DNA of 47,071 nt from a virus, in IMG/VR virus record IMGVR_UViG_3300046727_000129, positions 1-47,071 of that record. One strand, written 5' to 3'. The position numbers and the translations under genes were made by a program. This document shows, piece after piece, positions 14,092-47,071 of the stretch. Every line of letters starts with the position of its first letter. Within the stretch, counting starts at the first letter, position 1. The notes under the pieces are model-generated. The model was given only the letters and a program-made list of their open reading frames with translations. It ran no database searches and was not told the origin of the DNA.

Positions 14092-16525
14092 TCAGCATAT
14101 CCACCTGATGTTTCAAGGCTGTCAGTTGCACGTTGTACCAGTTCTGGTCGACATCGGCGTCAGCCTTGCGCGCATTGGCCAGATTGAGAATCGCCTGCGA
14201 CAGTTCCTTAATCTCGCTCGCCTTGTCCTTGCCGCGCCGGATCAGAATGTCCGCCTGCTCATGAGCGAAACGAATATCCAGCTCCTTGTTGCGCAGGTTC
14301 GCCATCTGACCGGCAATGTCGACTTGTTGCTTCTGCAGATCGAGGCTGGCTGCCGCCTGCACCAGCTCGGCATTGGGCGGCGCCTGCGGTGCCAGCAGCT
14401 TGTCTACCTGCTGGATGGACGCCGCCTGCATCGCGCGCAGGCGGATCTCACGGCCGTCAAAGAACGGGTCGCCCACGAACTGCAGGAGGAAGTTAGCCTG
14501 CGCCATCTGCTGGGTGTCGGTGACCATGTCCGGATCTGATACCGGCTCAGCCCCCGACCCTCTGAGGTAATCGGCGCGCGTGATCTGGAAGTATTCGGAA
14601 CCGATCCTAAAACCGGCTTCGTCAGGGAGATACAGACGGTTGAGCCGGAATAGTTTGTCGAAGTCCTGGCGGAGAGATCTATGGATGCGTTTGAAGATCG
14701 CATTGAACACCTTCAGCCCTTGCTGGATCACTGCCAGACCGAGGATCCCCGGAACATTCGCGCCGGGCAGCTGGCCCTGTAGTACCTCCTTGATCGAGCC
14801 GATGTCCTTCGCCGCCTCGACCAGGAACTGCAGCAGCTGGAACAGCACCGCGTTCGGCCCCGGCATCTCCAGCGGCACGAGGTTCTCGCGCAGCGTACGC
14901 CCCTGCGTGGTGACCACCTTGTATTCACCGGTCATGAACCGCACCGACCCGGCGTTGATCGACACGCCGCCGCCGATGAAACCGCCGCCCGCGATCTGCA
15001 GATGCCCCGCGTCGAACATCTGGTTGATGCTGGTGTTGACCGCTGCATTGAGCGGATACATCAGCGAACCGAACCCCAGATCGTAGGCGCCGCCTTCCGG
15101 GTTCGGAATGAAACCGTATTTCGTATAGTAATCGATCTGATTGATCTCGGCGACCTCACCGTCGTCGGTTGCCTCGATGCCGTCCTGGTCGAACCCCACC
15201 GTGATGCGCGCCAGCTTGCCCGAATCCCTGGCAAACGTAACGATCAGCGGCTCCTCGTAGCCGTCGTCGTCCAGATCGTAGCGGCGGTGCTGCTCGATGA
15301 ACGTGACCGGCGCCTGCTCGTCCTGGCTGGTGTCGGTGTTGCGGCCGTAGCCGTCCTCACCGTAATCGACCCACAGGCCTGAGCGGATGTTGCTCTCGAT
15401 CTCCCACGGGTAGAAGTCGATCAGCTCGCTCTTGCGCGGTGCCGCGTCGAAACTTTTCGCCGTGTAGTTCACGCACAATCTGAGCGCCGATACGATCTCC
15501 GACACATTGCGCCGCTGCTTGGGGTCGAAGTGGTTCTTGCGGAACATGGTCCCGGCGATCGCCACGGTGATCAGCAACCGGTCGGTCTGCTCCTCCCACT
15601 CGGGCATCTCGCTGAGCAGCTGCCACGACATGTGGCGGCCGATGCGGTCGGCGCGCGCCTGCTTGGACCCTGGTGGCTGGATCCACAGCTGCCGCCCGTC
15701 GGGGCTGGTCGCCTGCTGCGGTCCCTGCGGCTGCGGCGGGCCGCCCTGGCCGGGTGCTCCGGGTGGGCCGAGCTGCGCACCACCAGCGCCGGGCGGCATG
15801 GGAGGAAGTCCCGGCATCGGTGGAGGCGCCCCTGGTTGGGGCCCACCCAGACCGCCAGGAGCGCCTCCTGGCATCCCCGGCGGCGCAGGACCACCAGCTC
15901 CACCTCCAGGGCCACCGGGCGGCATCATACCTCCAGGCGGCTGCGCTGGCATCATCATCGGCACGCCACGGTCGTCACCGATCACCGTGCCCTTGACCAC
16001 GTTGCGGCCCTGCACGATCGCCGGGTAGGCGCGCGCATTGAACTGCAACGCCGCCACCGTGATCAGCGGGAAGCACACGTTCGACGCGTCGGGCCAGGGA
16101 TACGTCTTCGGCTGCATCACCTGCAGCGCAAAGTCCATCCAGTCGCCGTAGCGCTGCTTCCAGTCCGAGCGGGTCTCTTCGTCGAGCTCGTATTCCCGCT
16201 TCGCCTGATCCGCGAGGCGCTGCCGCTCGCTGTCATCGATCTCGTCGGCAATGTTCTTGCGCACGATCCAGCGGGCGAACTTCCGCGCATACTGCGGCTT
16301 CAGCAGCGGTCGCTGCTCGCCCTGGCTCTGGCGGGGATCACCGAGGCCGTCGTTCTGCTCCTGCCCTGGCGGGCGCAGCGGCAGGATGTCAGCGGATTTT
16401 AGCGGCTGCTGCTCGGGGTCATCGGGGGGCGGCCCCTGGTTGGTGTCACCATCCTGGGGCTGATTCGGGTCGTCCTGATCCGGCGATGGTCCTGGCGCCG
16501 GAAACGCGCTTAACGCGGCGCTCAT
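13925..16525 (-). CDS. Portal protein
   Basis: 866 residues from ATG at 16525, with GGAGG 12 bases upstream. Residues about 100-200 include the WKQRYGDWMDFALQVMQPKTYPWPDASNVCFPLI region typical of large podovirus-type portals, and later YYTKYGFIPNPEGGAYDLGFGSLMYPLNAAVNTSINQM. A Pro/Gly/Met-rich collagen-like insertion of about 95 residues (about 190-285) interrupts the N-terminal third. The C-terminus is Gln-rich and helical, then Gly-rich where it overlaps the next gene. Forms the dodecameric DNA gate at the capsid vertex. Confidence 0.87.
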   Translation of the reverse strand: MSAALSAFPAPGPSPDQDDPNQPQDGDTNQGPPPDDPEQQPLKSADILPLRPPGQEQNDGLGDPRQSQGEQRPLLKPQYARKFARWIVRKNIADEIDDSERQRLADQAKREYELDEETRSDWKQRYGDWMDFALQVMQPKTYPWPDASNVCFPLITVAALQFNARAYPAIVQGRNVVKGTVIGDDRGVPMMMPAQPPGGMMPPGGPGGGAGGPAPPGMPGGAPGGLGGPQPGAPPPMPGLPPMPPGAGGAQLGPPGAPGQGGPPQPQGPQQATSPDGRQLWIQPPGSKQARADRIGRHMSWQLLSEMPEWEEQTDRLLITVAIAGTMFRKNHFDPKQRRNVSEIVSALRLCVNYTAKSFDAAPRKSELIDFYPWEIESNIRSGLWVDYGEDGYGRNTDTSQDEQAPVTFIEQHRRYDLDDDGYEEPLIVTFARDSGKLARITVGFDQDGIEATDDGEVAEINQIDYYTKYGFIPNPEGGAYDLGFGSLMYPLNAAVNTSINQMFDAGHLQIAGGGFIGGGVSINAGSVRFMTGEYKVVTTQGRTLRENLVPLEMPGPNAVLFQLLQFLVEAAKDIGSIKEVLQGQLPGANVPGILGLAVIQQGLKVFNAIFKRIHRSLRQDFDKLFRLNRLYLPDEAGFRIGSEYFQITRADYLRGSGAEPVSDPDMVTDTQQMAQANFLLQFVGDPFFDGREIRLRAMQAASIQQVDKLLAPQAPPNAELVQAAASLDLQKQQVDIAGQMANLRNKELDIRFAHEQADILIRRGKDKASEIKELSQAILNLANARKADADVDQNWYNVQLTALKHQVDMLNALTDTGTDGEGGNASGGGGSGAPPGLARSVGAGLSAVAETPGVGADLPVAGGLS

Positions 16526-16563
16526 GGATATCGGCACCCTCCAGCAGTACGGCTATATCTATA

Positions 16564-16873: not shown

Positions 16874-17023
16874 AGACTCGCTCTCCTGTGGCGGCACTCT
16901 CGCTTGAACTGGCTCGCTTCTGTGGCTTGGTATCCTCCAGCAGCACGGCTCGCTCTGGATTGACGGTACTCTCCCGTGGCGTGGCTCGCTCATCTACAAC
17001 GGCACTCTCTGCGAAGGCGGCTA
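16874..17023 (-). repeat. Alternating 18-bp repeat array, copy 1 (after large terminase)
   Basis: Eight 18-bp units on strict register plus a terminal CGGCTA. Plus-strand consensus alternates YGGCTCGCTC-N8 and CGGYACTCTC-N8. On the minus strand the array opens TAGCCG-N8-GAGAGTGCCG, and that TAG (17023-17021) is the stop codon of the terminase gene. One unit (about 16928) is degenerate (TGGTATCCTC). The array fills the whole gap to the next gene. Confidence 0.9.
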
Positions 17024-18532
17024 GTAGCCCGTCGTTCGACTACGCGTGCGATCCTGCACCAAGCGAGAGTTCAGCTCAATCATCTCGTTGTCGACCTGAT
17101 CGCCCTTCCACTGCAGGCTGGGGCCGAACAGCCGCGTCGCGGTGTATTGCAGCGCATCAGCCGGGTGCGAATACGAATTCTTCTCGGGCTTCTCGGCCCA
17201 TCGCTCGTTGCCCGCCATCTGAATGCGGCGGTAGTGGTAGCCACCCATCAGCGCCCGTCGCAACCGCGCGCAGCGGGGGTGCAGGTTGAACGCCGGGCGG
17301 CCGTCGTCATCGAACTGGCGCAGCGGTTTGCGCACCGCCTCCTGGCGGATCTGCGGCGACTGCATCCCCGGCTCGATGTTGATGCCTTTGTTGTGCAGGA
17401 TACCGAAGCAGGTGCGCTCATCGGTCTCGGCGCGGCTGTCGCCAGCCGGGTCGCCCACGTCAACGAACTCGCTGTCGGGGAAGTATTGCGTCGAGTGTGA
17501 CAGCACCCGGTCGCTGAACCGGTCGATGCCCATGCTATCGGCGCACAGCTCGTCAACCACCTTCCACTGGCCACTTGCTGCGAGCTGGCTGAACACCACC
17601 GCAGGCGTCAGCCCGAAGTCCCAGCCGCGATGCACCGGCAGTCTGGGATCGGTCTTCGGCGCCCGCTTCTCGTCGGCGCTGCCTGGGCAATGGATGTTGT
17701 CGTGGTATTCGGGGAACACCGGCTTGCCCTCGGTGACGAAACCATATTCGCCCTTGCAATAAACCCGGATCCATTCATCGGTCTTGCCGATCGCGAGGCG
17801 CTGCCAGTAGCCGGGGCTCTGGTTGCTCTTGTTCTCGGCGTTGGGGCTCAGCCCCGAGGGTTGCTTGAAGATGCGGGCATAGCGATCGACCGTCATGCCG
17901 GGGATGAACTGCGCCAGCTGCTCGACCGCCTCGGTGTGGTCCATCTGCTCGAAGAACTTGTACCACGACGAATCGGTGTCGGGCGGGTTGGTGTCCATGA
18001 TGATGCCCGCCCACGTCGCGCCGCCGTCGCGCTTGGCGGGGTAGCGATCGACACGGCCTTGCAGCGCATCAATGATCGTCCAAGGCACCTCCCTGGCTTC
18101 GTTCACCCAGGCGCCGGTCAGGTCGAGCGACAGTAGATTGCGCACATGGTCGGGCCGGTCGAGGGCGCGGAACAGCAGCTCGATTTCCGCGCATTTCTTG
18201 TCGCCGTGCGCGATCAGCCGGTTCAGCAGATACTCGTGCTCGGTGCTGCGCCAGATCCCCATCATGGGATACGGGAACCATTGGTGGACGGTCCTGATCG
18301 TGGTGTCGTTCAGTTGTCTATACGTATTGCGGATGATCGCCCAACGGCTGCGCCGGATGCCGTCCGGTCCTGGTGTCTGCTTGAGGCTGCGGTTAACGAT
18401 ATCCCACAGACATCCGGAACTCTTTGCGCTACCGAACGGACCCATCAGCCCCCGGATGAACGCGTCATCGTGCAGGAACGCGTGGATCGTGGGGATATCT
18501 GCTGTGTTAAAGTCGAGACTCGGGCGCGGCAT
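17021..18532 (-). CDS. terL: Terminase large subunit
   Basis: 503 residues. Walker A-type GPFGSAKSS at residues 31-39. A Walker B-like segment follows (LLSLDLTGAWVNEAREV, around residues 134-150). The C-terminal nuclease region contains HRGWDFGLTPAVVFSQ and EFVDVGDPAGDSRAETDERTCF. Packages phage DNA into the prohead using ATP. Start overlaps the upstream stop (TGATG). It ends on TAG, the first bases of the repeat array. Confidence 0.92.
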   Translation of the reverse strand: MPRPSLDFNTADIPTIHAFLHDDAFIRGLMGPFGSAKSSGCLWDIVNRSLKQTPGPDGIRRSRWAIIRNTYRQLNDTTIRTVHQWFPYPMMGIWRSTEHEYLLNRLIAHGDKKCAEIELLFRALDRPDHVRNLLSLDLTGAWVNEAREVPWTIIDALQGRVDRYPAKRDGGATWAGIIMDTNPPDTDSSWYKFFEQMDHTEAVEQLAQFIPGMTVDRYARIFKQPSGLSPNAENKSNQSPGYWQRLAIGKTDEWIRVYCKGEYGFVTEGKPVFPEYHDNIHCPGSADEKRAPKTDPRLPVHRGWDFGLTPAVVFSQLAASGQWKVVDELCADSMGIDRFSDRVLSHSTQYFPDSEFVDVGDPAGDSRAETDERTCFGILHNKGINIEPGMQSPQIRQEAVRKPLRQFDDDGRPAFNLHPRCARLRRALMGGYHYRRIQMAGNERWAEKPEKNSYSHPADALQYTATRLFGPSLQWKGDQVDNEMIELNSRLVQDRTRSRTTGY

Positions 18533-18738
18533 CAGTCATCCTTGTAGCCCTCCTGGAGCGGCTCGGGGAGCATGCTCTCATGCTCCGCCGTCCACGGCTC
18601 AGGCGGCTTCCCGCCATAGTCCATGAAGATATAATTCTCCCGCGTCGGCTCGATGCCCTTCTTCAGCATGTAGTCCAACGTCCCGTTGGTGCCGCGATAC
18701 GGTTCCCAGTCAATCTTAGTCTTCGGCGTCGTCGCCAT
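18532..18738 (-). CDS. Small hypothetical protein before terminase
   Basis: 68 residues (MATTPKTKIDWEPYRGTNGTLDYMLKK...), hydrophilic, ending LQEGYKDD. Strong GGAGGAG site upstream of the ATG. It overlaps the previous gene by 23 bases and is coupled to the terminase by TGATG. Function unknown. Confidence 0.7.
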   Translation of the reverse strand: MATTPKTKIDWEPYRGTNGTLDYMLKKGIEPTRENYIFMDYGGKPPEPWTAEHESMLPEPLQEGYKDD

Positions 18739-20746
18739 GATCCACTCCTCCTGCCCAACTGGGCAGTTTTAACCCGCCCGCATGAGTAAGGATAGCCTCT
18801 CGTCTCTCATCTGGCGTTTTTCCACGATGCGCGCCCTTGTTGCGCCACATATCGGCGATCTCACGCACGAAGCCAGGGTTGCGCTTCTGCTCAGGACTGA
18901 AGATGCCCCGGATGCCTTCCCAGGTCACTGACTGCAGCTCGCGCGGCAGGATCCCCAGATCCTTGGCGGCCTGCCGGTAGGCCTCGGCATACAGGCCATA
19001 CATGCCCTTGTTGCCCAGCGTCATGCTGTTGCCAGCCTGCGGCAGCTTCACCGCGCCCTCCTCCTTGGACTGCTTCGGGTTGGTGCCCAGCCCGTGGGCG
19101 ACCTCCATGGCGCTGGCACCGAGCGGTCGCAGCAACGCGGCGGCGATCGCGTGGGTGTCGATCGTGACGTCGTGACCGTGATGCGGCGCGATGATGTTGT
19201 TGAAGAAATTGCGCACCTTGTGGGCCTTGCCCATCAGCCGCGAGACCTCGGGCAGATCGGCGTTCTGCAGCGCCGCCATGGCCTTCTGGATCTCGCTGAA
19301 GCTGCCCCAGGTGACGTCGCGCGGCCTCGATGCCTCCTTCAGCTTACCCTTCTTGGTGTACTTCGCCGGGATCATTGCGGTGTCGCCCATCTCGCCTTCG
19401 GGCGTCACCATCTTGTAGGAGCGCGGGGTGTGCGCTTCGTCGTGCCAACGCGCGAACACCGCACGCTCATAGGGGTCGGTCAGCTCCGACATCGGCGTAC
19501 CGTGGAACTTCTGCTGCAGCTCCCGCAGCTCGCCGATATTCTCCTCCGGGTTCTCCCCCTTGCGGGTCTTGGGATTGGCAGCGGCTTTCTCCAACGAGGC
19601 GATGTACTTGTCGGAGTAGTTCTTCATCTCCTCCGTCATCGTCCAGTTGTTGCCCAGCTTGTGGGCAGTGAACGCGCGGCGGGCCAGATCGACGTTCTGA
19701 TACCAATCCTTCTGCGGGCTCAGCGATGCCAGCACCGCCGCCGCCTGATATGGCTGGACACCGAATTCCTTGGCCAGATCATGCGCGATCTTGTTGGCAC
19801 CGCTGTACCAGCGCTTGGCGCGCTCGACGATGCCAGGACCGATCGGTCCGTTCTTGTCGTTCATCTTGCGATAGAGCCAGACCAGATTGTCCTTGGCGTG
19901 CCTGATGAAGGCCTCATTGATCTGGTCGGGATTGTCAGTGCGCAAATGAGCGAACCCCGGATAATGCTGCTTGATGATCGCGGCGTTCTTGGCCTTCTGG
20001 TCGGTCGCCGCGTTCATGCTGTTCATATCGATCGACAGACCAGACGTCGCATGCGCGTCGATACCAGCCTTCTTCTGCGCAGGCTCGGACGGGATGCGGG
20101 TCGAGATGCGGTTGTGCGACTGGCTGTCGACCGCCGGGTCAGCGCCTGCGGCCGACGGCGGCGCGATCACGCCCTGCGCGTCCTCGGGTGCCAGCGGACG
20201 GCCACCGGCCTGCGCCAGGGCGGCGCTGCCACCACCGCCACCAGCGAACGTCGGGACGCTGCCCATGGTCTGTGCCGCGAGCCGCTGCGCCACGGCGCCA
20301 CGCTGGCGAACGAGGCCGCCGCTGGTGGGATCCTGGGCAAACTGCGTCAGATCATGCGGACCACCATCCCCTGGCGCGCCGGGCGCCATCCCAGGCGCTG
20401 CAGCGCGCAGCATGGCCGCCCCCTGCGGTCCAGGCATCATCGAGAGCGCGGGTGGTGGTGATGGCGCCGCCATCGGCGGTGCGGGCGGCGGTGGAGCCGG
20501 TGGCGGCGCGGCCAGCGGCGACGGGGGCGGCGCCAGCTGCGTCGGCGTCATCCCCTGCGCACCCATCTGCGTCATGTGCTGCGCGATCCTCGGGTCGATC
20601 GGCGGGATCGGCGGCGGCGCCGGGGGCGCGAACATCTGGTGCGTCAGCTGGCCCAGCGGGTTGAGCTGGTCCTTATACTTCTGCAACGGATTGGTGTCGT
20701 CCTCTGGCCGGTTGAGCTGCGGATAGGGGATCGTGCCAAGTGCCAT
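18716..20746 (-). CDS. Large internal/ejection-type virion protein with DUF7178-like domain
   Basis: 676 residues. The N-terminus (MALGTIPYPQL) resembles that of the upstream neighbour (ALGTIGYPTL). Residues about 20-130 are Pro/Ala-rich. From about 245 onward there is a helical globular domain with FAHLRTDNPDQI, PYQAAAVLASLSPQKDWYQN, HDVTIDTHAIAAALLRPLG and MYGLYAEAYRQAAKDLGILPRE. This set recalls a phage domain I know as DUF7178; enzymatic activity is not established. Position between terminase and the ADP-ribosyltransferase-like protein suggests a virion protein ejected with DNA. Confidence 0.75.
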   Translation of the reverse strand: MALGTIPYPQLNRPEDDTNPLQKYKDQLNPLGQLTHQMFAPPAPPPIPPIDPRIAQHMTQMGAQGMTPTQLAPPPSPLAAPPPAPPPPAPPMAAPSPPPALSMMPGPQGAAMLRAAAPGMAPGAPGDGGPHDLTQFAQDPTSGGLVRQRGAVAQRLAAQTMGSVPTFAGGGGGSAALAQAGGRPLAPEDAQGVIAPPSAAGADPAVDSQSHNRISTRIPSEPAQKKAGIDAHATSGLSIDMNSMNAATDQKAKNAAIIKQHYPGFAHLRTDNPDQINEAFIRHAKDNLVWLYRKMNDKNGPIGPGIVERAKRWYSGANKIAHDLAKEFGVQPYQAAAVLASLSPQKDWYQNVDLARRAFTAHKLGNNWTMTEEMKNYSDKYIASLEKAAANPKTRKGENPEENIGELRELQQKFHGTPMSELTDPYERAVFARWHDEAHTPRSYKMVTPEGEMGDTAMIPAKYTKKGKLKEASRPRDVTWGSFSEIQKAMAALQNADLPEVSRLMGKAHKVRNFFNNIIAPHHGHDVTIDTHAIAAALLRPLGASAMEVAHGLGTNPKQSKEEGAVKLPQAGNSMTLGNKGMYGLYAEAYRQAAKDLGILPRELQSVTWEGIRGIFSPEQKRNPGFVREIADMWRNKGAHRGKTPDERREAILTHAGGLKLPSWAGGVDHGDDAED

Positions 20747-22623
20747 CAGCCTGTCGCCTTATGATCGCGCAACGCATCGGCACCCGCATCCACCATCGCT
20801 GGCAGGCCGTTACGCTTCACGATGTTGATCGTTCTTGGATCGAACACAACGTAGTTGTGCGTACGATGGTGGGCTTCGAGATGGGCTTGCGCCTCTTCTT
20901 TCGTGTTGAATGTGGCGAGAGGAAAATTATTGTTCCTATGGAACACAGCCCATGCTCTTTTGCCGTCACCCGTAGTGTAGGGACCAACATCTGTTAACCG
21001 GCTGTCTTGATCCACATACTTGATGCCAGGAATACCAGCGTTCAGCAGTTTCTCTGCAGCTATCGGCCTGCGCGTCTTGTCGCCTCCGGTCAGATAGTCG
21101 TGCAGCATCTGACCGGTCATCTTGCTGCCGATCGAGGCGGATGGAGCGAGAGGGATAGCCCTGCTCTGCACATACGGGTGCTGCTGCCCGATGGGATGGT
21201 CCCAGTGCAGCATATGATCCTGGTCGATGTGCAGCTCGGCTTCGTAGAGGTGGCCAGGGTTATGCGTGAAATCCTCTAGCTTCAGTCTCTGTACCGCGTC
21301 CGCTATGCCAGCAGAGCGATGTCCCGCTTCCTGCCATGACTGCCAGACGTGGCTCTGGGGCTTGCTGAACGCATTCGCCGCCTCTTGCTCATGCGTCTGT
21401 CGTACATGCTCGATCGCCTGCTGGGGCGCCATGCCGTGCTCGTGGATCGTATCAAGCACCTCTCTGGCCGCATTGTAATCGTGGCCACTGAGGCCCATGG
21501 GATCTGACTGGCCCTTATATTTCGCGCCCTCGGCTAGGTTCTTCCGGTATGCCTCACCCGTCCCCCTGGCGCCACCGGTATAGGCGCCGTGGCCATACAT
21601 CTGGCCGCCTTCGCCGCTGCTCATCTTGCTGAGATCGAACTCGCCCAACTGATTGACGCGCGTCGGTTTGAATTCGTGCTGCGTGCCGTGCCACACCGTC
21701 TGAGGATCCGACATCCTGATCAGCTGGCCGCTGCCGTAGCTCTCCGGGCCGGGCGCTGCTGGCACGTTGCCGCGCGCTGCGACGTGCGCCAGGGCGGCGT
21801 GCTGCGCTGCCGTGCCCTCGTCATAGTCGCTGACCGTGCGGCCGTCACCAGGGTTGTAGGCGCCTGCCTGCGGGTCATGCGCCATGAACACCACGTCAGG
21901 CCTGCCGCCCTTGAACTGCTTGAACGCGTCGTGGTTCCAGCCCTCGGGCTTGTAGTCCTCGTTCCACGGCAGCCGCGCCACGGTGCGGAACCCGTTCTGC
22001 GCGTAGATGTGCGGCAGCACGGTATCAAACGCATCGAGCCGCCTGCCGCCCTCCTGCTTGGCGAGATCCAGCATCGATCGGGTGACGTTACGGTATGGCG
22101 CCTTCGGATGTTTGAACACCGAGACGATGTCGTCGCCCTTCAGGGCGAACCCGGCGTCGCCTTCCTTGGTCTGGAACAGCCGCATCTTGCGGTAGTCCTC
22201 GGCCGGATACTGGGTGACGGCAGCACCGGCCGGGTGACCGTGCTTGGCCTCGGCGATCGCGGCGTGGAACGCGTGCGCGCCCTCGGGGTGAAGCTCATGG
22301 TAGTCGGGATTGTCGGCGTTGTGGTAGCTGCGGTTGGCGCTCCAGATGGTCTTGACCGGTGGGCCTAGACCCAGTGCCTCAGATGCTCCCGCGCTTCTTC
22401 CCGTGTAAGCCCCTGCTGCACCAGCTTGTCCACCAGCTCCTCCAGCAGCTTGTCCGCTTCGCGATGGATCTGCGGGGTGGACCGCTGGTAGCTGTGGGAC
22501 TGCTGGGCCAATTGACTGCTGCCCTTGGGTGGGTGGGCCACTGGATCCTCCAAACGACGATAGCGCCGACGGTCCGGGCGTCGGCAGGGTCGGATAACCA
22601 ATCGTGCCTAACGCACCGGACAT
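20746..22623 (-). CDS. Virion-type protein with GNAT-like and ADP-ribosyltransferase-like domains
   Basis: 625 residues. After a Pro/Gly/Ala-rich N-terminus, residues about 95-260 hold an acetyltransferase-like domain (MRLFQTKEGDAGFALKGDDIVSVF, LDAFDTVLPHIYAQNGFRTVARL, RPDVVFMAHD). Residues about 310-610 resemble phage ADP-ribosyltransferases: VWHGTQHEF, GEGGQMYGHGAYTGG, LYEAELHID...LHWDHPIGQQ, and a late YVVFDPRTINIVKRNG. Such proteins are thought to enter the host with DNA and modify host proteins. Codon use in 22365-22541 fits another frame better, so the N-terminal third may be partly mis-called. Confidence 0.8.
   Translation of the reverse strand: MSGALGTIGYPTLPTPGPSALSSFGGSSGPPTQGQQSIGPAVPQLPAVHPADPSRSGQAAGGAGGQAGAAGAYTGRSAGASEALGLGPPVKTIWSANRSYHNADNPDYHELHPEGAHAFHAAIAEAKHGHPAGAAVTQYPAEDYRKMRLFQTKEGDAGFALKGDDIVSVFKHPKAPYRNVTRSMLDLAKQEGGRRLDAFDTVLPHIYAQNGFRTVARLPWNEDYKPEGWNHDAFKQFKGGRPDVVFMAHDPQAGAYNPGDGRTVSDYDEGTAAQHAALAHVAARGNVPAAPGPESYGSGQLIRMSDPQTVWHGTQHEFKPTRVNQLGEFDLSKMSSGEGGQMYGHGAYTGGARGTGEAYRKNLAEGAKYKGQSDPMGLSGHDYNAAREVLDTIHEHGMAPQQAIEHVRQTHEQEAANAFSKPQSHVWQSWQEAGHRSAGIADAVQRLKLEDFTHNPGHLYEAELHIDQDHMLHWDHPIGQQHPYVQSRAIPLAPSASIGSKMTGQMLHDYLTGGDKTRRPIAAEKLLNAGIPGIKYVDQDSRLTDVGPYTTGDGKRAWAVFHRNNNFPLATFNTKEEAQAHLEAHHRTHNYVVFDPRTINIVKRNGLPAMVDAGADALRDHKATG
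22365..22541 (-). CDS. Embedded helical mini-protein, alternative frame
   Basis: 58 residues from GTG at 22541, with GGAGG five bases upstream, ending TAG at 22365. It includes READKLLEELVDKLVQQGLTREEAREHLRHW, a clean amphipathic helix. Third codon positions in this frame are mostly G/C, like other genes here; the host frame has many A/T there and reads only Gly/Ala. This points to real translation inside, or instead of, the N-terminus of the larger gene. Confidence 0.6.
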   Translation of the reverse strand: MAHPPKGSSQLAQQSHSYQRSTPQIHREADKLLEELVDKLVQQGLTREEAREHLRHWV

Positions 22624-22633
22624 GCTCTGGTTA

Positions 22634-22855
22634 TATCACACTCACACTTCTCGGCACTCTCAATTGCCGTGGTTAGCTCGTTCTTCTCGGCACTCTCTGA
22701 CCAATCGGCTCGCTCGTCTGGGTCGATACTCTCGGCTCGCTCGGCTCGCTCACTGTATACGGCACACTCGCCGGAAGCGGCTCGCTCGCGATGCTCGGCA
22801 CGCTCCGATGACAAGGCTCGCTCCACATAGTCGGCACTCTCAGGCATGTCGGCTA
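22634..22855 (-). repeat. Alternating 18-bp repeat array, copy 2 (after HhH gene)
   Basis: Twelve 18-bp units plus terminal CGGCTA, in register. On the minus strand it begins TAGCCG-N8-GAGAGTGCCG, the TAG being the stop codon of the helix-hairpin-helix gene (22855-22853). The two conserved versions alternate for most of the array, while the eight variable bases differ in every unit. The last units decay toward the start of the GNAT/ART gene. Confidence 0.92.
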
Positions 22856-24022
22856 ACGCTTGTTACGCTGCGCCCGCTGACGCGCCTCGTAAAGCTCCGG
22901 GAAGATCATGTCGACGTTCGGGATCTCCAGGCTATGCACATGCCCCGGCACATGATCCAGCACATACGGATGCGGCGGCAGCTTGCCATACTCGTGCCAA
23001 TACATCACCTCGTGCAGATGCGAGAGGAACACCTTGGTGGCGCGTCTGTGGCTACGCGCGTGTATACGAGCCGGTGGTAGCATGCCCTGGCTGTACCACT
23101 TGAACGCGTCGGTCTCCTTGCTGTAGCTCTTGGTCTCCAGCGCCAGCTTGGCCTGATCGGCATACAGTTGGCGCGAGTTACGCTCGGTCTCCCATTCCTT
23201 GCGCGCCTTGTAGAGCTGGCCATACAGGCTGTCGGGGCGGTTGCACACCTTCACGAAGCTCTCGCCGATCAGATAGCACAGCCGCTTCAGCGCGGCGTTC
23301 CACGGCCGCTTCTCGCCCTTACCCCAGACGCTGGTCGGGTCGAGCCCCGCGAAGCGCCAGATGTGCCCGACCGTCGGCGCCCGCCGGATGTCGATATGGG
23401 CCAGCAATCCTGCCGCGATCACCGGGCCGATGCCCTTGATGCTGCGGGCCCAGATCCCTGGCCGGTTGCTCAGGCTGTAGATGTTCAGCGTGCCCCGGAT
23501 CTGCACCTCCAGCGCATCCTCCTGGGTGAATAGCCATTCGAGCACGTCATACGGCTCGGGCACTCTCTCCTTCGGCGCCTCGCCATCGGCAGATTCAGGC
23601 GCCTTCTCGGTATCCTTCGGCTGCGCCAGGGTGGTGACCTGATGCCGCGTGCGGATGCGATTCTCCTGCATCGTGTAGTAGGCATCGGTGAGGAAGCGTG
23701 CTTCGGCGCGGCCGAGGGTGCGGCTGGCCTTCTTCAGATCCGCCGTCAGCTTCTGGATCGGCGTCAGCAGGCCGGGATCCATCGTGCCGGTCATCAGCTG
23801 GTGCAGCGCATCGAGCCGCTGGAACAGGCCCTTGGTCAGCTCCTGGCCACCACCGTTGGCACCGTGGCGCAGCAGATCGAGCGCGTCGGTCACCAGATCG
23901 AGCGGCTGCATCTCCAGGAAGTCCTCGGGGCCCAGCGGCTGCTCTGGCTCGACGTCGGGTGGGGGTGGTGGAGGCGCCTTGTTCCGGGCGCCTCTACCGG
24001 TCTTCTGGGTGGGTGGTTTCAC
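22853..24022 (-). CDS. Helix-hairpin-helix protein related to the IS110-type transposase C-terminal domain
   Basis: 389 residues from GTG at 24022, with AGGA five bases upstream; the open frame continues into the repeat array and was not used. The N-terminus is basic then Pro-rich. Residues about 205-270 carry RSIKGIGPVIAAGLLAHIDIRRAPTVGHIWRFAGL and NAALKRLCYLIGESFVKVCN, the arrangement of the Transposase_20 (IS116/IS110/IS902) C-terminal fold. No N-terminal RuvC-like DEDD domain is apparent, and no inverted repeats flank it. A phage DNA-binding or packaging role seems more likely than transposition. Repeat arrays lie on both sides. Confidence 0.78.
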   Translation of the reverse strand: MKPPTQKTGRGARNKAPPPPPPDVEPEQPLGPEDFLEMQPLDLVTDALDLLRHGANGGGQELTKGLFQRLDALHQLMTGTMDPGLLTPIQKLTADLKKASRTLGRAEARFLTDAYYTMQENRIRTRHQVTTLAQPKDTEKAPESADGEAPKERVPEPYDVLEWLFTQEDALEVQIRGTLNIYSLSNRPGIWARSIKGIGPVIAAGLLAHIDIRRAPTVGHIWRFAGLDPTSVWGKGEKRPWNAALKRLCYLIGESFVKVCNRPDSLYGQLYKARKEWETERNSRQLYADQAKLALETKSYSKETDAFKWYSQGMLPPARIHARSHRRATKVFLSHLHEVMYWHEYGKLPPHPYVLDHVPGHVHSLEIPNVDMIFPELYEARQRAQRNKR

Positions 24023-24027: not shown

Positions 24028-24321
24028 TCCTCGCTCTCTGGTGGTCGGCACTCTCGCAGGCTGCGGCTCGCTCGCTTGTGTTGGTACTCTCACGGGGTAC
24101 GGCTCGCTCGCGTGCTCCGGTAATCTCAGCACTCGTGGCTCGCTTCCTTCTGACGGCACTCTCGTATTTCGCGGCTCGCTCTCGCTTCATGACACTCTCA
24201 CGCGCGCTGGCTCGCTCATCTCGGTTGGCACACTCAGCCACCCTGGCTCGCTCGGCATAGTCGGCACTCTCTTCTCGTGCGGCTCGCTCCCCTAGATCGG
24301 CACACTCGGCTTCCACGGCTG
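24028..24321 (-). repeat. Alternating 18-bp repeat array, copy 3 (longest)
   Basis: Fifteen good units (24046-24315) plus a decayed unit at 24028 that carries the ribosome site of the downstream HhH gene, and CGGCTG instead of CGGCTA at the far end. Alternation of the two conserved decamers is kept throughout. One frame is open across the entire array and would read ERAxxxESAxxx hexapeptides, but the variable bases do not look protein-selected. Confidence 0.92.
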
Positions 24322-25870: not shown

Positions 25871-26160
25871 CAGCGCCGCTGTCGGGACGCTACGGCCGGG
25901 TGCTGCGCCAGCTTGTCCTCGGGCTGCTCCTGGCTGGCCAGATAGTTCGGCGCGTAGTCCTGCTTGAACGCCGGGTGGTCGGCCGAGCTGGCGGTGGGCG
26001 CCTTGTCGGTATTGTGGATCACTACCAGATCGCGCCACGCCTCGTAGGGCAGGTGCTCGGGCCAGCCCGCCTGCTGCGCCGCCCACAGATGATGCCCAGG
26101 CTGTTCGATGTGAGGGTAGCCGAGCCCATAACGCGGGGGCTCGGCTCGCTCTGGGTTCAC
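25870..26160 (-). CDS. Hypothetical protein starting inside a repeat array
   Basis: 96 residues from GTG at 26160 (MNPERAEPPRYGLGYPHIEQPGHHLW). The GAGAG of the last repeat units, four bases upstream, would serve as ribosome site, so the array runs into the coding start. The body (AWRDLVVIHNTDKAPTASSADHPAFKQDY) is hydrophilic. No family recognised. Confidence 0.62.
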   Translation of the reverse strand: MNPERAEPPRYGLGYPHIEQPGHHLWAAQQAGWPEHLPYEAWRDLVVIHNTDKAPTASSADHPAFKQDYAPNYLASQEQPEDKLAQHPAVASRQRR

Positions 26161-26399
26161 GGTACTCTCTAGCGCTTCGGCGCGCTCAAGTACGTTGGCA
26201 CTCTCGCCGTTCGTGGCTCGCTCAGATAGTTCGGCACTCTCCTGCGACCCGGCTCGCTCTGTCTTCGCGGTACGCTCCTGCGCTGGGGCTCGCTCGGCGT
26301 TCGTGGTGCTCTCAGGATCTTCGGCTCGCTCTGCCATTTCGGTACCCTCACGAGGGTCGGCTCGCTCATCAACTTCGGCACTCTCATGCAGCTCGGCTA
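26142..26399 (-). repeat. Alternating 18-bp repeat array, copy 5
   Basis: Fourteen units in exact register plus terminal CGGCTA. On the minus strand it begins TAGCCG-N8-GAGAGTGCCG with TAG being the stop of the HiPIP-like gene (26399-26397). Two-state alternation is unbroken. The final units provide the start region of the next gene. Confidence 0.92.
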
Positions 26400-26582
26400 T
26401 CGTGATCCTGCTCGCTTGATCCAGCGATCGCACCATCCCCCAGGCCGGATCAGGCCCAGCACCAGATGGCACGCGTCAGGCGCACGCCAATGCACGCACA
26501 GATCACACCGCTCCGACTGCATCTCGGCCTTGGGCGTGTAGTGCGTCACCTGCTTCGTTAACTTCCTCGGTGGCGGCGCCAC
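26397..26582 (-). CDS. HiPIP-like small Cys protein
   Basis: 61 residues. CDLCVHWRAPDACHLVLGLIRPGGWCDRW shows the C-x2-C...C...G-x-I-x-P-x-GWC-x-W arrangement of phage proteins resembling high-potential iron-sulphur proteins. These are often encoded beside packaging genes. The basic N-terminus includes KQVTHYTPKAE. Weak ribosome site before the GTG. Role unknown. Confidence 0.72.
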   Translation of the reverse strand: MAPPPRKLTKQVTHYTPKAEMQSERCDLCVHWRAPDACHLVLGLIRPGGWCDRWIKRAGSR

Positions 26583-29143: not shown

Positions 29144-29198
29144 TTGACATGATGGTTCCTGATGGTTCATAAGGAACTTACCAACCCAGGAGTATCCC
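29144..29198 (+). promoter_or_regulatory. Early promoter with tandem operator-like boxes and start-associated sequence
   Basis: TTGACA at 29144-29149, CATAAG at 29168-29173, spacer 18. The spacer carries TGATGGTT twice, exactly 10 bp apart (29150 and 29160). AGGAGTATCCC at 29188-29198 precedes the ATG at 29201. The same module recurs at five other places in this window. For the divergent late genes I see only a weak TTGCCC/CAAATT pair around 29107-29135. Confidence 0.75.
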
Positions 29199-29200
29199 AG

Positions 29201-29398
29201 ATGACCAAGACCACCACCCCAAAGACGAAGGTTTACACTTACACTCCTTCCCGCACTATCCACGCTTTCGACCGGGTTTTGGGCCATCTGCTTGGCGTTG
29301 TCGTGCAGATCGAGGGCAGCAAGGTAACCTATCGCGCCACGAACGGCTCCCTCCACACCATTGCCGCCTGTTTGGTCACTTGGGGAGGGGAGGACTGA
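29201..29398 (+). CDS. Small early hypothetical protein
   Basis: 65 residues starting MTKTTTPKTKVYTYTPSRTIH. The start follows AGGAGTATCCC by two bases; an in-frame ATG inside the promoter region was rejected. Beta-rich end (VVVQIEGSKVTYRATNGSL). Function unknown. Confidence 0.7.
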   Translation: MTKTTTPKTKVYTYTPSRTIHAFDRVLGHLLGVVVQIEGSKVTYRATNGSLHTIAACLVTWGGED

Positions 29399-29401
29399 GC
29401 C

Positions 29402-29614
29402 ATGATCACCAAGGATGTCATTGCCGCCGTCAAGCGCCACAAGGGTCCGATCCAGATCGGGCTGGTGGCCGCTGACGATGTGATCTGGGTGCAGATCGTG
29501 AAGTCGGACCTGCTGGCCGCGATCGCCAAGACCGAGGACTGGCAGATCGAATGGAGCGTCAAGAACGGCACCGGTTACGTCGACCGCTGCTACGGCCGCC
29601 CGGTAGACGCCTGA
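29402..29614 (+). CDS. Small hypothetical protein
   Basis: 70 residues (MITKDVIAAVKRHKGPIQIGL...), GGAGG eight bases upstream. Alternating beta and helix pattern, ending YVDRCYGRPVDA. Co-transcribed with the previous gene. Function unknown. Confidence 0.7.
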   Translation: MITKDVIAAVKRHKGPIQIGLVAADDVIWVQIVKSDLLAAIAKTEDWQIEWSVKNGTGYVDRCYGRPVDA

Positions 29615-29621
29615 GCTGGGC

Positions 29622-29651
29622 GTGGGCCAGGGCTTGCACCCCCTGGCCCAC
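29622..29651. terminator. Hairpin between convergent genes
   Basis: Perfect 11-bp stem GTGGGCCAGGG / CCCTGGCCCAC with an 8-base loop, in the short gap between the plus-strand early gene and the minus-strand PEP-CTERM gene. No T-run, but its location fits a bidirectional terminator or 3' stabiliser. Confidence 0.7.
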
Positions 29652-29656
29652 TGGTA

Positions 29657-30490
29657 TCAGCGCCGCTTTCTGGCGGTCACGACGCCGATGCCGAGCGCGC
29701 CCAGGCCGAGCAGCAGCAGTGATGCAGGCTCAGGCGCATCGACTGGCGGAGGTGGTGGAGGCGGTGGAGGCGGCGGTGGTGGAGGCGGTCCCATCGACGT
29801 GGTGGTGAGAAGCCCCGCGTTGGTGAACGGTGTCTGCCCGATCGCGCCGTTCGGATCGCACGCCAGCCCGGCCGGTGAGCCAACCTCGCACGAGTAGGTC
29901 ATGACGTAGGTACCGGCGGCAGCGCCGATCTCGGTGGCACTGAGGTCGATGCTGCCGGTGATCGCCGCCGGGATGACGAACGCATCGAGGAAATAAGTGG
30001 AGGGCACCGGCAGTGGTGGTGATTGCAACGGCGAGGTCAAAGCGAAGTTGGCGTAGCTCTCGCTGCCGCCGCTGGCGAGGCCCAGTTGGGCGTAGACGTC
30101 CTGGCCTGCGCTGAGTGTGGGCGTGGCCAGTGACAGGCCGTAGATGCCCCCGGTGGCCATGGCGCAGGCGTTCCCGGCTCCGGTGCAGGACAGCGAGGTC
30201 AGGCTGATCGGCGCGTTGGTGGGTGCAGCGAAGATCACCAGTGTCGGGCTTTGCATGGTGTGGTTGCCCTGCACGCCGAACACCAGGGTGCTGCCACCGG
30301 CTGCGGTGCCGCTGATCAGGTTGCTCTCGTGACCGATCGCGGTGCCACCGAGCGCGCCCGTGGTGCCTGACGGGCCGACCCAGAGCTGTGGATCACCGGT
30401 ATCTCCGATCACCGGCATGGCCGACGCATGTGGCGGGTGGAACCAGAGCGCACCGCAGACGATCGCGGTGGTGGCGAGAAGTCTTTTCAT
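29657..30490 (-). CDS. Secreted PEP-CTERM protein
   Basis: 277 residues. Signal peptide MKRLLATTAIVCGALWF...ASA, Ser/Thr/Gly-rich body, a run of about 15 prolines near residue 240, and a C-terminal PEP-CTERM signal: PEPASLLLLGLGALGIG followed by RKRR. The signal marks export and processing by a host exosortase. AAAGGA before the ATG. Such proteins are usually bacterial; finding one in a phage cluster is unusual. Confidence 0.85.
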   Translation of the reverse strand: MKRLLATTAIVCGALWFHPPHASAMPVIGDTGDPQLWVGPSGTTGALGGTAIGHESNLISGTAAGGSTLVFGVQGNHTMQSPTLVIFAAPTNAPISLTSLSCTGAGNACAMATGGIYGLSLATPTLSAGQDVYAQLGLASGGSESYANFALTSPLQSPPLPVPSTYFLDAFVIPAAITGSIDLSATEIGAAAGTYVMTYSCEVGSPAGLACDPNGAIGQTPFTNAGLLTTTSMGPPPPPPPPPPPPPPPVDAPEPASLLLLGLGALGIGVVTARKRR

Positions 30491-30580
30491 TGTGACGTTC
30501 CTTTAAAAAGACAAGCGACACGTCAAGGGGGTCTCAACCATGTCGCCTGTAGTGGCTCCCAGACGCGGGTGTGCCCCCGC

Positions 30581-31231
30581 TTATGTGCGACGGCGCTTGG
30601 CGACCACGCCCAGGCCCAGCACGCCCATCCCCAGCAGTGCGAGGCTGGCGGGTTCCGGTGCCGGGATCGGCTCGGCACTGAAGGTGCCCGATACGGAGCT
30701 GGTGAAGCTGGCCAGCGTCGAGCCGTCCAATCCGACCGGCGGGGTGACGTTAGCGAACGAGAACGCGACCGCGACCGGCGGGCCAAGCTGATCGAGCGGC
30801 ACGACATCGCTGGTGAAGGCGGCGAGGTCGGGTGGCGCGCCGACCGTGATGGTGGCGGCGGGGCCGGTGCCCAGCAGCAGGTCGGTGAAGGCACCGGAGA
30901 GCAGGTTGGTGCCGCCGCCACCGGCTGCGGTGCGGATGCTGAAGGTGCCGTCGAAGTGCTGCAGCACGCTGGTGCCGACCATGAAGGCGGCGCCGTCGCT
31001 GATGGCGTTCAGGGTGAGGAAGTCGGTGACGCTGGGCGAGCCGCCCAGGATCTGGGTGACACTGACCGAGACGTCGGTGCCGCTGATCGTGGTGCTGGTG
31101 CCGCCTGACGCGGTGCCGGTGATGGTGTTGCCGCTGCCGTTCTGGCCGAACGTCAGGACCAGGGTGGCATTGGCGACCGGTGCCAGTGCCACGGCGGCGA
31201 TGGCGGTTGCCGCGAGTAGGAGGTTGCGCAT
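30581..31231 (-). CDS. Secreted PEP-CTERM protein, second copy
   Basis: 216 residues from ATG at 31231 (MRNLLLAATAIAAVALAPVANA, signal peptide), with AAGGGA upstream. Beta-rich body with FAFSF-like strands and a C-terminal PEP-CTERM: PEPASLALLGMGVLGLG then KRRRT. Only the signal elements are shared with the first. The 90-bp gap between the two holds TTGACG followed by an AT-rich stretch, a weak promoter candidate. Confidence 0.85.
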   Translation of the reverse strand: MRNLLLAATAIAAVALAPVANATLVLTFGQNGSGNTITGTASGGTSTTISGTDVSVSVTQILGGSPSVTDFLTLNAISDGAAFMVGTSVLQHFDGTFSIRTAAGGGGTNLLSGAFTDLLLGTGPAATITVGAPPDLAAFTSDVVPLDQLGPPVAVAFSFANVTPPVGLDGSTLASFTSSVSGTFSAEPIPAPEPASLALLGMGVLGLGVVAKRRRT

Positions 31232-31346
31232 GTCGTTTCCCTTTGCAAAGGATACCCGAGGGCGGGCGATGCCAGGGAAGCACATTTCGTTGCAATGGTG
31301 TTGTAAAGAGTTCCGACAAGATACGAAGGCGTAACTGTAGCCAACT

Positions 31347-31529
31347 TCAAGCGGTTGACTCTCGTGGCTCGGAACGATCCGGCTGCAACAGCGCGTCGAC
31401 CGCCTCCCGCAGTTCGCGGTTATGCCGCTCCAGATCGGCGTTCTCGGCTTCCTGCTCGGCGATGGTAGCGCGCAGTTCTGCGACCAGGAGGCGCAGTTCA
31501 GCGGCATTCATGACGTCTTCGCAGCTCAT
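31347..31529 (-). CDS. Coiled-coil mini-protein
   Basis: 60 residues from ATG at 31529 (ATGA overlap with previous stop). LRLLVAELRATIAEQEAENADLERHNRELREAVDALL is a heptad-type coiled coil. The tail is RSEPRESTA, with DNA resembling the array repeat. The 115-bp gap to the next gene contains no clear signal. Function unknown. Confidence 0.65.
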   Translation of the reverse strand: MSCEDVMNAAELRLLVAELRATIAEQEAENADLERHNRELREAVDALLQPDRSEPRESTA

Positions 31530-32677
31530 AGCCCGCTCCATACGTCGCCTGTGACATGCGCCAGGACGGTGGTCGAGCTGATCTCGGTCATCAGCGCCTT
31601 GACCGAGACCGGGTCGTGCCAGACCTCCGGGTGGGCAGCAGCGTAGTGGTTGAAGTCCTGCAGGATCAGCGTGTGATACTGGCTCAGCGTCAGCGTGGGG
31701 GGTGGTGGTGGCGTCGGCGGCAATACTGGCGGCGGTGGTGGCGGCGGTGGTTCTGTTGGCGGTGGCTGTCCAGCAGCCGGATAGATGAAGTGCATGGCGC
31801 TGGTGTCCAGCGTCGGGCGCGTAGTCAGCAGCACGGTGTCGGCACCGAAGCTGCCAGCCCCCAGCCCGAACACCCGGTTGCCCGACAGCCCGAGCGGCGT
31901 GCCGGTGGTGTTGAGGATGCCGCGCCCGGACGGGTCATCGTTGACGATGGTGTTGCCGGTGATCGCCACCGAGGCACCACTGCCGGTGGTGCCTTCCTCG
32001 CCGTAGGCGATGATGAACGGGTTCTGTGTGTTGGCGCCTTGCTCGATTACGTTGCCGCTGACGGTAGCGCCGCCACCATTAGGCAGATCAACGCTATAGC
32101 TAGCACTGCCACTATTATCGAAGATGCGATTGCCAGTGATGTTGTTGCTAGCAGCCCTCGATTTGATCTCATGGCCCACCACCGCATCATGGACGTAGCT
32201 GTTGGTCAGGCTAAACCGGGCGATCGCGCCGACGTAAATGTTATGGGTCGAGCCGCTGCCTTCGCCATTGTGATCGATCTCGCTGTGGTCGATGCTGATG
32301 CGGCCGTTGGAATCCGCCGCGCCCAGGATGCCCTCCTGGTTGTTATGCAACGAAACATTGGAGAGATTCAGCGTGCCGCCTTCATAGCGGATCGCCGCGC
32401 CGTTGTTGTCGCCGACCACCGCGCCGCTGACGTCAAAGCCCGAGAGATTGACGGTGATCCCACCCGCGCCCTCGGTGATGATGGCCTTGCCGTTGGGTGC
32501 GTTGGTGGTGGCGGCGAGCACGGCGGGGCCGCCGATCGCTTCGATGGTCAGCGATTTACCGACGGTCAGGAACTGATTGACGTAGCGCCCGGCGGCGACG
32601 TCGATGATGTCACCCGGTGCGGCGGCGTTGATCGCGGCCTGGATCGAGCCGCCTGCGGCGACGGTGATGATGGCCAT
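31526..32677 (-). CDS. Right-handed beta-helix protein with Pro-rich linker
   Basis: 383 residues. MAIITVAAGGSIQAAINAAAPGDIIDVAAGRY is the classic entry to a pectin-lyase-type fold. Residues about 60-280 consist of repeated rungs (ISIDHSEIDHN, FSLTNSYVHDA, ASNNITGNRIFDN). A PPPP-rich linker at about 300-330 leads to a small helical C-terminus. No signal peptide. It may be a spike, a depolymerase, or a partner of the PEP-CTERM proteins; catalytic residues were not identified. Confidence 0.75.
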   Translation of the reverse strand: MAIITVAAGGSIQAAINAAAPGDIIDVAAGRYVNQFLTVGKSLTIEAIGGPAVLAATTNAPNGKAIITEGAGGITVNLSGFDVSGAVVGDNNGAAIRYEGGTLNLSNVSLHNNQEGILGAADSNGRISIDHSEIDHNGEGSGSTHNIYVGAIARFSLTNSYVHDAVVGHEIKSRAASNNITGNRIFDNSGSASYSVDLPNGGGATVSGNVIEQGANTQNPFIIAYGEEGTTGSGASVAITGNTIVNDDPSGRGILNTTGTPLGLSGNRVFGLGAGSFGADTVLLTTRPTLDTSAMHFIYPAAGQPPPTEPPPPPPPPVLPPTPPPPPTLTLSQYHTLILQDFNHYAAAHPEVWHDPVSVKALMTEISSTTVLAHVTGDVWSGL

Positions 32678-32695
32678 GCGCGTTCCCCTGGCTGT

Positions 32696-32800
32696 TCATA
32701 CGCGTGTATCACGTTTTGTAGGGGCGCGCAGGACACCGGCCGCCAGCAGTAGCATGGCAAGCGGGATAGTGAGGACCATGACGCCCCAGTAGCGGATCAT
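32696..32800 (-). CDS. Single-span membrane micro-protein, 34 residues
   Basis: MIRYWGVMVLTIPLAMLLLA begins one membrane helix, followed by a basic tail RAPTKRDTRV. ATGA overlap with the stop of the previous gene. Function unknown. Confidence 0.62.
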   Translation of the reverse strand: MIRYWGVMVLTIPLAMLLLAAGVLRAPTKRDTRV

Positions 32801-33869: not shown

Positions 33870-33871
33870 GC

Positions 33872-34431: not shown

Positions 34432-34433
34432 CT

Positions 34434-35224: not shown

Positions 35225-35226
35225 AG

Positions 35227-47029: not shown

Positions 47030-47071
47030 TCGCTCACGATATTCGGCACTCTCGGCGCAAGCGGCTTAGCA
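47030..47071 (-). repeat. Alternating 18-bp repeat array, copy 6 (edge)
   Basis: TCGCTC-N8-CGGCACTCTC-N8-CGGCTTAGCA on the plus strand. On the minus strand it starts TGCTAAGCCG, so a stop codon (TAA) may again open the array, for a minus-strand gene lying beyond the edge. Confidence 0.7.

What the first reader, a model, noticed from the sequence alone, without database searches (positions are those of the whole stretch)
17018..17023. The repeat boundary converts the conserved GAGCCG into TAGCCG at the host gene's stop
Internal units read ...GAGCCG; the first unit of four arrays reads TAGCCG at the same register, one base different, creating the amber stop. The edge array has TAAGCCG. This could mean arrays grow out from gene ends, or integrate at TAG. 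Amber readthrough would add an RVPxxxSEPxxx-type tail.
Basis: partly seen in the sequence, partly recalled or inferred. Interest (0 to 1): 0.7.

Follow-up and report, generated by a model that had tools for sequence, protein, structure and literature searches.

The report
Phage guide-RNA arrays abutting stop codons
The repeats that start right on a phage gene's stop codon are arrays of tiny guide RNAs from a TIGR-Tas system; the stop codon looks odd only because the gene and the first guide share one or two letters, and the guides may be aimed at sibling phages.

Summary
On the minus strand at 17018-17023 the terminase gene ends in TAG, whose AG also begins AGCCG, the start of a repeat array. 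The array is a TIGR (tandem interspaced guide RNA) array: edge repeats GAGCGAGCCG and loop repeats GAGAGTRCCG alternate with near-random 8-nt spacers, period 36. The gene between two arrays (22853-24022) encodes a Tas protein (NCBIfam TIGR_Tas_endo, 184.7 bits, cut-off 100), apparently nuclease-less TasA. Arrays start with the 3' half and end with the 5' half of an edge repeat, the mature tigRNA ends of Faure et al. 2025. The outer half-edge belongs to no guide and is absent; the gene's own T, TG or TA completes the stop. It is not a GAG-to-TAG conversion, not insertion at TAG (eight terminase relatives without a flush array stop at the same residue with TGA), and probably not a readthrough tail (stops at chance frequency in all frames). 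Extra: in the spacer geometry I inferred from that paper, tigRNAs match sibling phages more often than shuffled controls, notably just downstream of arrays. This bears on the open question of natural TIGR targets; numbers are small and test sets were partly chosen after the fact.

The parts
17021..17023 (-). TAG stop of the terminase gene; its AG is the first two bases of the first tigRNA
16879..17022 (-). TIGR array 1 (flush on terminase stop): starts AGCCG (17022-17018), ends GAGCG (16883-16879)
16987..17022 (-). first tigRNA unit of array 1: AGCCG-CCTTCGCA-GAGAGTGCCG-TTGTAGAT-GAGCG
16519..16554 (-). single tigRNA unit TACTGCTG/ATATCCAT; its terminal GAGCG overlaps the likely ATG (16525-16523) of the portal-like gene
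22639..22854 (-). TIGR array 2, flush on the TAG stop of the tas gene
24032..24320 (-). TIGR array 3, upstream of the tas gene (starts CCAGCCG, not at a stop)
26147..26398 (-). TIGR array 4, flush on the TAG stop of a 61-aa ORF (26397-26582)
47031..47066 (-). single tigRNA unit CTTGCGCC/AATATCGT near the contig edge; begins in TAAGCCG
22853..24022 (-). tas gene (389 aa; start GTG 24022 uncertain): Nop-domain Tas protein, apparently of TasA type, no nuclease domain recognised
   Evidence: NF052498 TIGR_Tas_endo 184.7 bits vs 100; profile hit to TasR 9mty 7e-23; model aligned to TasH Z 18.5 and TasR Z 17.4
17021..18532 (-). large terminase gene (503 aa), upstream neighbour of array 1
   Evidence: tblastn to annotated phage terminases, best 43% identity
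18267..18282 (.). candidate target (1 mismatch) of a guide carried by two sibling contigs (G005, G013), in the terminase gene
21936..21951 (.). candidate target (1 mismatch) of a guide carried by sibling contig G007, in ORF 20746-22623
30896..30911 (.). candidate target (1 mismatch) of a guide carried by sibling contigs G007 and G010

Best explanation
The repeats are TIGR guide-RNA arrays of a phage-borne TIGR-Tas system, apparently of the TasA type. Each 36-bp unit (AGCCG, spacer A of 8 nt, GAGAGTRCCG, spacer B of 8 nt, GAGCG) is one tigRNA, cut in the middle of the edge repeat GAGCG|AGCCG. An array therefore begins with AGCCG and ends with GAGCG, because only those halves belong to a guide. 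The arrays lie in gaps between tightly packed genes. The upstream coding sequence often runs right up to the first guide, so its stop codon is completed by the guide's first one or two bases (T+AG, TG+A, TA+A), or lies in or just before the first unit. Shown here: array anatomy, truncated ends, Tas identity, stop overlap, absence of coding signal, and the state in relatives lacking a flush array. Inferred from the published TIGR-Tas work: transcription, processing into 36-nt tigRNAs, and RNA-guided DNA binding by the Tas protein. Inferred here: the guides address sibling phages, probably to block rather than cut them, since no nuclease domain was recognised.
For: Edge and loop repeats alternate at 1255 of 1270 steps in 99 distinct arrays (of 136 found; duplicates and arrays without flanks dropped). 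The outer half of the terminal edge is missing in the 67 arrays that begin and the 52 that end with a loop repeat; the 32 and 47 that by the strict 18-nt phase begin or end with an edge repeat were not profiled. Spacers are near-random: 637 of 669 and 654 of 700 distinct, at most 0.06 bit per position except 0.21 at the first base of spacer B. Tas identity: NF052498, 2e-54; profile matches to TasR, TasH, IS621 and ISCro4 chains; TasR and TasH fill the first 11 Foldseek rows and stand at Z 17.2-18.5, above IS621 at 12.8. A tas homologue is in 43 of 56 array contigs, many partial; in 30 of the 43 (my count of the rows) an array starts within 60 nt of its stop. Terminase orthologues: flush TAG in the window, G008 and L044; flush TGA in G001; TGA without a flush array in eight others, all ending at the same residue. 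[quoted passage not shown]
Against: No RNA data: transcription and processing are not shown. Faure et al. [quoted passage not shown] No terminator-like site lies at the window's array ends; the scan found 6 sites against 5.8 in shuffles. 31 of 56 array starts were not scored as flush at -3 to -1 (5 of them at +5). Orientation with the upstream gene is not universal by my test: a sense ORF of at least 100 codons ends at the array start in 49 of 98 arrays, and an antisense one ends at the other side in 19 of 98. The first 101 residues of the Tas protein are modelled with low confidence and were not searched alone, so an extra domain is not excluded.
Confidence: 0.9

Rival explanations
1. The array is coding: amber readthrough of the terminase or Tas stop adds an RVPxxxSEPxxx tail.
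For: In one frame the commonest repeat changes are synonymous (GTR, CCR), and the 36-nt period keeps frame (letters). In the window, two of three flush arrays would be read through for 59 and 75 codons.
Against: Stops occur at chance frequency in all three frames over 648 and 669 distinct units (209 observed against 217 expected in the SEP/RVP frame). Over 34 flush arrays readthrough gives a median of 23 codons, ending inside the array in 27, and only 8 codons after terminase in the window. No tRNA gene in the window.
Confidence: 0.03
2. An insertion mechanism targets stop codons, placing arrays there as mobile units.
For: Array starts pile up at -3 to -1 of stops. Presence differs between close relatives at the same terminase stop, in two registers. 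Whole 36-bp units are gained or lost between relatives.
Against: The eight terminase relatives without a flush array have TGA, not TAG. Registers differ (-1, -2, -3, +5). Compact packing plus selection for an intact protein and an intact first guide gives the same picture without a targeting enzyme.
Confidence: 0.12
3. The 10-mers are DNA-level sites (stoperator-like or partition sites, recalled) for a phage DNA-binding protein, the spacers being only distance.
For: Strong 10-mer conservation with random spacers; many copies between genes.
Against: Strict alternation of two repeat types and truncation in the middle of the edge repeat fit tigRNA units. The adjacent gene is an equivalog match to a TIGR-Tas protein. 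Target matches depend on pairing the two spacers of one unit.
Confidence: 0.03

Closest known systems
TIGR-Tas systems (Faure et al. 2025, Science, PMC12045711)
   Same: Alternating edge and loop repeats, two short spacers per 36-nt unit, truncated terminal edges, Nop-domain Tas gene beside arrays, carriage by phages.
   Different: GAG...CCG box-like ends here (UG...CCA in their TasR arrays); 8-nt spacers (9 nt in most of theirs; 16 nt in all for their TasH system). Arrays are dispersed: 4-7 array stretches over about 9-12 kb in one phage group, not only beside tas, and many share letters with the upstream stop codon. The term 'stop codon' does not occur in their main text; supplements were not read.
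IS110 / IS621 bridge-RNA recombinases
   Same: Shared RNA-binding (Nop-like) part.
   Different: NCBIfam transpos_IS110 scores 24.2 against a cut-off of 140. No DEDD-domain hit in Pfam, and the RNA is an array rather than one bridge RNA.
CRISPR arrays
   Same: Regular repeats with unique spacers.
   Different: 10-nt alternating repeats and 8-nt spacers. No search for cas genes was made.

Membership tests
TIGR-Tas | Two distinct alternating 8-12-nt repeats with about 9-nt spacers | tested here: met
   10-nt repeats, 8-nt spacers, alternation 1255 of 1270
TIGR-Tas | Truncated edge repeats at both array ends | tested here: met
   AGCCG kept and GAGCG lost at the 5' end (67 of 99 arrays profiled); GAGCG kept and AGCCG lost at the 3' end (52 of 99 profiled)
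TIGR-Tas | Associated Nop-domain Tas protein | tested here: met
   NF052498 equivalog 184.7 bits vs 100; 9mty and TasH structures
TIGR-Tas | Edge and loop repeats share terminal box motifs | tested here: met
   GAG...CC[G/A] in both repeats
TIGR-Tas | Array followed by a rho-independent terminator | tested here: inconclusive
   No site at window array ends, scan at shuffle level; hairpins seen downstream of some sibling arrays by eye only
TIGR-Tas | Processing into 36-nt tigRNAs | not testable with these tools
   needs RNA sequencing
TIGR-Tas | Tandem-spacer DNA recognition (spacer A on one strand, B on the other) | tested here: inconclusive
   Matches enriched only in this order and, in g1, only at contiguous spacing, in small sets partly chosen after seeing hits
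TIGR-TasA subtype | Nop domain without RuvC or HNH nuclease | tested here: inconclusive
   Pfam at E 0.01 finds only Transposase_20; the aligned part of the model is residues 102-374, matching TasR 112-322 and TasH 65-309; residues 1-101 are low confidence, modelled as loops and helices without strands, and were not searched alone
IS110 transposon | IS110 transposase model above its cut-off | tested here: not met
   24.2 bits vs 140
Translated repeat tail | Open reading frame kept through the repeats | tested here: not met
   stops at chance frequency in all frames

The most novel reading that the evidence does not exclude
The natural targets of these TIGR-TasA guides are sibling phages. Each phage carries tens of tigRNAs, some of which pair, in the tandem a + reverse-complement(b) geometry, with sites in close relatives (terminase, the gene after an array, the DNA just downstream of a relative's array), while its own copy of the site differs. 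Without a nuclease, TasA would act as a roadblock or bender that suppresses a co-infecting sibling, and arrays would change by gain and loss of whole 36-bp guides.
Probability: 0.5. Interest if true: 0.8.

Novelty: new member of a known kind. Interest (0 to 1): 0.6.

Why it matters
TIGR-Tas was described in 2025, and its discoverers list natural spacer targets and array expansion as open (PMC12045711 Discussion). This phage group offers many related arrays, 747 distinct 8/8 guides from a set of 56 contigs, with a statistical sign of which DNA the guides address, and orthologous array alleles that differ by whole 36-bp units. It also turns an odd stop-codon pattern into a landmark: where an array is flush, the stop marks the 5' end of the first guide. 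I know of no earlier report of natural TIGR targets; in print I looked only at the listings and at the one paper named.

Tried and rejected
Coding tail or readthrough: rejected. Rfam: no family at its gathering score. tRNA or suppressor tRNA: none in the window. Host by genome scan: 7 bacterial contigs each hold one pattern match, with at most one repeat pair at 18-nt spacing, so no prophage or host was identified. PADLOC: no match. A scan with the terminase brought 10 loci, nearly all of them contigs already held.

Target search, results for and against. Only guides with 8/8 spacers were used (747 of 801). Whole 56-contig set, published order: 3 guides with exact and 34 with one-mismatch hits (36 guides in all), against 0.6 and 23.9 (sd 4.4, maximum 33) in 40 shuffles; other orders gave 0-1 and 20-23. 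Control set of distant Tas relatives and bacterial contigs: 1 and 28 against 0.55 and 23.3 (sd 4.5), no clear excess. Within groups: g1 (297 guides) 0 exact and 8 one-mismatch against 1.9 (sd 1.3, maximum 5 in 60), orders 1-3 gave 2, 1, 2, out-group 3; g2 (81 guides) 2 exact and 2 one-mismatch against 0.6, orders 1-3 gave 0, 1, 0, out-group 1. At two mismatches neither group shows an excess (36 against 28-40; 6 against 7-12). A 7+gap+7 test in g1 gave 6 at contiguous spacing (shuffle mean 0.8, maximum 4 in 100) and 0-1 at other gaps; in g2 2 (mean 0.2, maximum 2) and 0-1 elsewhere; over all contigs 12 against 7.8 (sd 2.6), not significant. A variant ignoring the outer bases gave 1, 4 and 17, without a shuffle control. 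Downstream 300 bp of arrays: 2 exact and 6 one-mismatch against 0 and 0-2 in 10 shuffles (five of the eight within g1 or g2, three between groups); control orders 0-2; upstream 300 bp 0. The groups and the flank were chosen after the first hits were seen, so p-values are optimistic. One search took 11 of the 12 in-group guides; 7 of the 11 have an alignable own copy of the site. Self-avoidance is untestable: no own-contig hit appears among the 36 guides, but only 0.5 was expected.

Sharing of whole guides between non-orthologous sites is rare (4 of 747; 142 shared at the same site only). The idea that the 3' half-edge GAG serves as ribosome-binding site fits a subset at most (13 of 46 array ends have a candidate start within 10 nt).

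Full report
What was checked. The finding says that the conserved GAGCCG of a repeat becomes TAGCCG where an array meets a gene's stop. On the minus strand at 17027-17010 the sequence is CTACTAGCCGCCTTCGCA, then GAGAGTGCCG; TAG at 17023-17021 ends a 503-aa ORF. The same TAGCCG stands at the start of the arrays near 22854 and 26398 and of a single unit at 16554; the unit near the right edge has TAAGCCG; the array at 24320 has CCAGCCG.

What the array is. On the coding strand two 10-mers alternate: GAGCGAGCCG (A) and GAGAGTRCCG (B), each followed by 8 variable bases. The A-B pattern occurs in 61 stretches of viral contigs. In 99 distinct arrays of at least six units, A and B alternate at 1255 of 1270 steps. 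The 8-mers carry almost no information (0.01-0.06 bit per position, 0.21 at the first base after B) and are nearly all different. In each of the three reading frames the total of stops is what base composition predicts (110 against 108, 209 against 217, 450 against 433), so I take the array as untranslated.

Who owns it. The gene between the arrays at 22.7 and 24.1 kb hits Pfam Transposase_20 of IS110, the NCBIfam equivalog TIGR_Tas_endo with 184.7 bits against a cut-off of 100, and, as a profile of 26 relatives, the solved TasR (7e-23) and TasH (5e-14) chains ahead of IS621 (2e-4). Its AlphaFold model (mean pLDDT 77) has TasR and TasH chains as the first 11 Foldseek rows and aligns to them at Z 17.2-18.5, IS621 at 12.8. 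The aligned part is residues 102-374, opposite TasR 112-322 and TasH 65-309, i.e. the Nop part without RuvC or HNH. Residues 1-101 are poorly modelled. It is best read as TasA, though NCBI's family name says endonuclease. A tas homologue was found in 43 of 56 array contigs.

The published frame. Of Faure et al. (PMC12045711) I read the outline, sections 4, 5, 6, 8, 10 and 49 and search passages of others, no supplements. [quoted passage not shown] In our set, the 67 of 99 arrays that begin with a loop repeat keep AGCCG before it (50-59 of 67 per base), while the five bases further out match GAGCG at 6-21 of 67. At the other end the 52 of 99 that end with a loop repeat keep GAGCG (38-40 of 52) and lose AGCCG (6-17 of 52). 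So A is the edge repeat, B the loop repeat, the unit is AGCCG-N8-GAGAGTRCCG-N8-GAGCG, and array ends coincide with tigRNA ends.

Why the stop codon sits there. In 56 distinct truncated array starts the upstream ORF's stop begins at -1 in 17 (all TAG), -2 in 7, -3 in 1, and +5 in 5 (TGA as the first bases of spacer A); in 26 elsewhere. Terminase orthologues give the direct comparison. The window, G008 and L044 read TAC or TAT then T|AGCCG. G001 reads TAC TG|AGCCG. G007, G013, G018, L046, L020, L024, G006 and G019 have no array at the stop and read TAC TGA; in seven of these eight an array lies 186-192 nt further on. The protein ends at the same place in all twelve; the stop codon is TGA or, when the array is flush at -1, TAG. 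The 61-aa ORF behaves alike: TAG in the window, TGA in the other seven contigs with a hit, of which G006 and L076 show repeats flush as TG|AGCCG by eye. Flush stops are TAG in 10 of 14 genes against 95 of 397 in 27 contigs (p 3e-4). The plain reading is compact packing: coding sequence and first guide are both constrained and share one or two bases. Insertion targeted to stops is not excluded. Arrays of some more distant Tas relatives begin the same way by eye (L103, L107 and L126 as T|AGCC, L092 and L125 as T|AACCA).

How arrays change. Orthologous arrays in siblings keep terminal units and gain or lose whole 36-bp units inside (clearest in groups g6 and g8). Of 747 distinct guides, 142 recur in more than one array at the same site only and 4 at different sites. 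In one phage group a contig carries 4-7 array stretches over about 9-12 kb.

What the guides address. From the paper's 8-nt 3' overhangs I inferred that a target is spacer A followed by the reverse complement of spacer B. This is my derivation, whose two passages word the side of the cut differently; a 3' overhang requires this order under either wording. In this order, more than in three control orders, guides match sibling phages: g1 8 of 297 guides at one mismatch against 1.9 in 60 shuffles (none reached it), g2 4 of 81 at one mismatch or less against 0.6 (none reached it), with out-group databases at 3 and 1. A spacing scan peaks only at contiguous spacing in g1. Eight guides match within 300 bp downstream of arrays (2 exact, 6 with one mismatch; five within a group, three between groups) against 0-2 in 10 shuffles and 0 upstream. 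In 7 of 11 in-group guides examined the source phage has an alignable copy of the site, and it differs from the guide by 3-4 bases or an indel, in flanks that are themselves only 64-86% identical. The window phage carries three one-mismatch sites of sibling guides (18267, 21936, 30896) and one of a guide from another group (45535). Against this: groups and flank were chosen after the first hits; there is no excess at two mismatches; the whole-set excess is modest (36 guides against about 24); the spacing test over all contigs is not significant; avoidance of self cannot be tested with these numbers.

Verdict. A real pattern, explained: TIGR guide arrays packed onto gene ends, beside a TasA-like gene. 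New member of a known kind. The value lies in the sibling-target evidence, which makes an open question of the field testable.

Noticed in passing
window 29182-45099 (for example 35906, 36568, 36778, 45068 +; 34414 -): A recurrent start-associated motif CAGGAGTATCCCA-ATG, partly preceded by TTGACA...TTCATAAG promoter-like repeats, before several ORFs in the other half of the window (families D13, D17, I3, I15).
   Followed up: no
L177-L178 (contig G021): Arrays of the same repeat family on both strands of one phage contig, plus strand near 11-14 kb and minus strand near 21 kb.
   Followed up: partly
3' ends of sibling arrays, for example G002, G022, L011, L010: In 13 of 46 array ends a candidate start codon follows the last half-edge within 10 nt, and GAGCG lies where a ribosome-binding site would be.
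   Followed up: partly
window 16519-16554: A one-unit TIGR array whose terminal half-edge overlaps the likely ATG of the portal-like gene.
   Followed up: no
window 43853-43888: A lone match to the tigRNA unit pattern (AGATGCTT/GTATGAGG), on the plus strand judging by the motif hit at 43866; may be chance.
   Followed up: no
window 36890-38503: DNA helicase with two RanBP-type zinc-finger stretches.
   Followed up: no
window 18716-20746: DUF7178 protein (PF23802, three stretches) between terminase and the tas region.
   Followed up: no
window 22853-24022, residues 1-101 of the Tas protein: Partly proline-rich, low-confidence N-terminal extension ahead of the Nop part.
   Followed up: no
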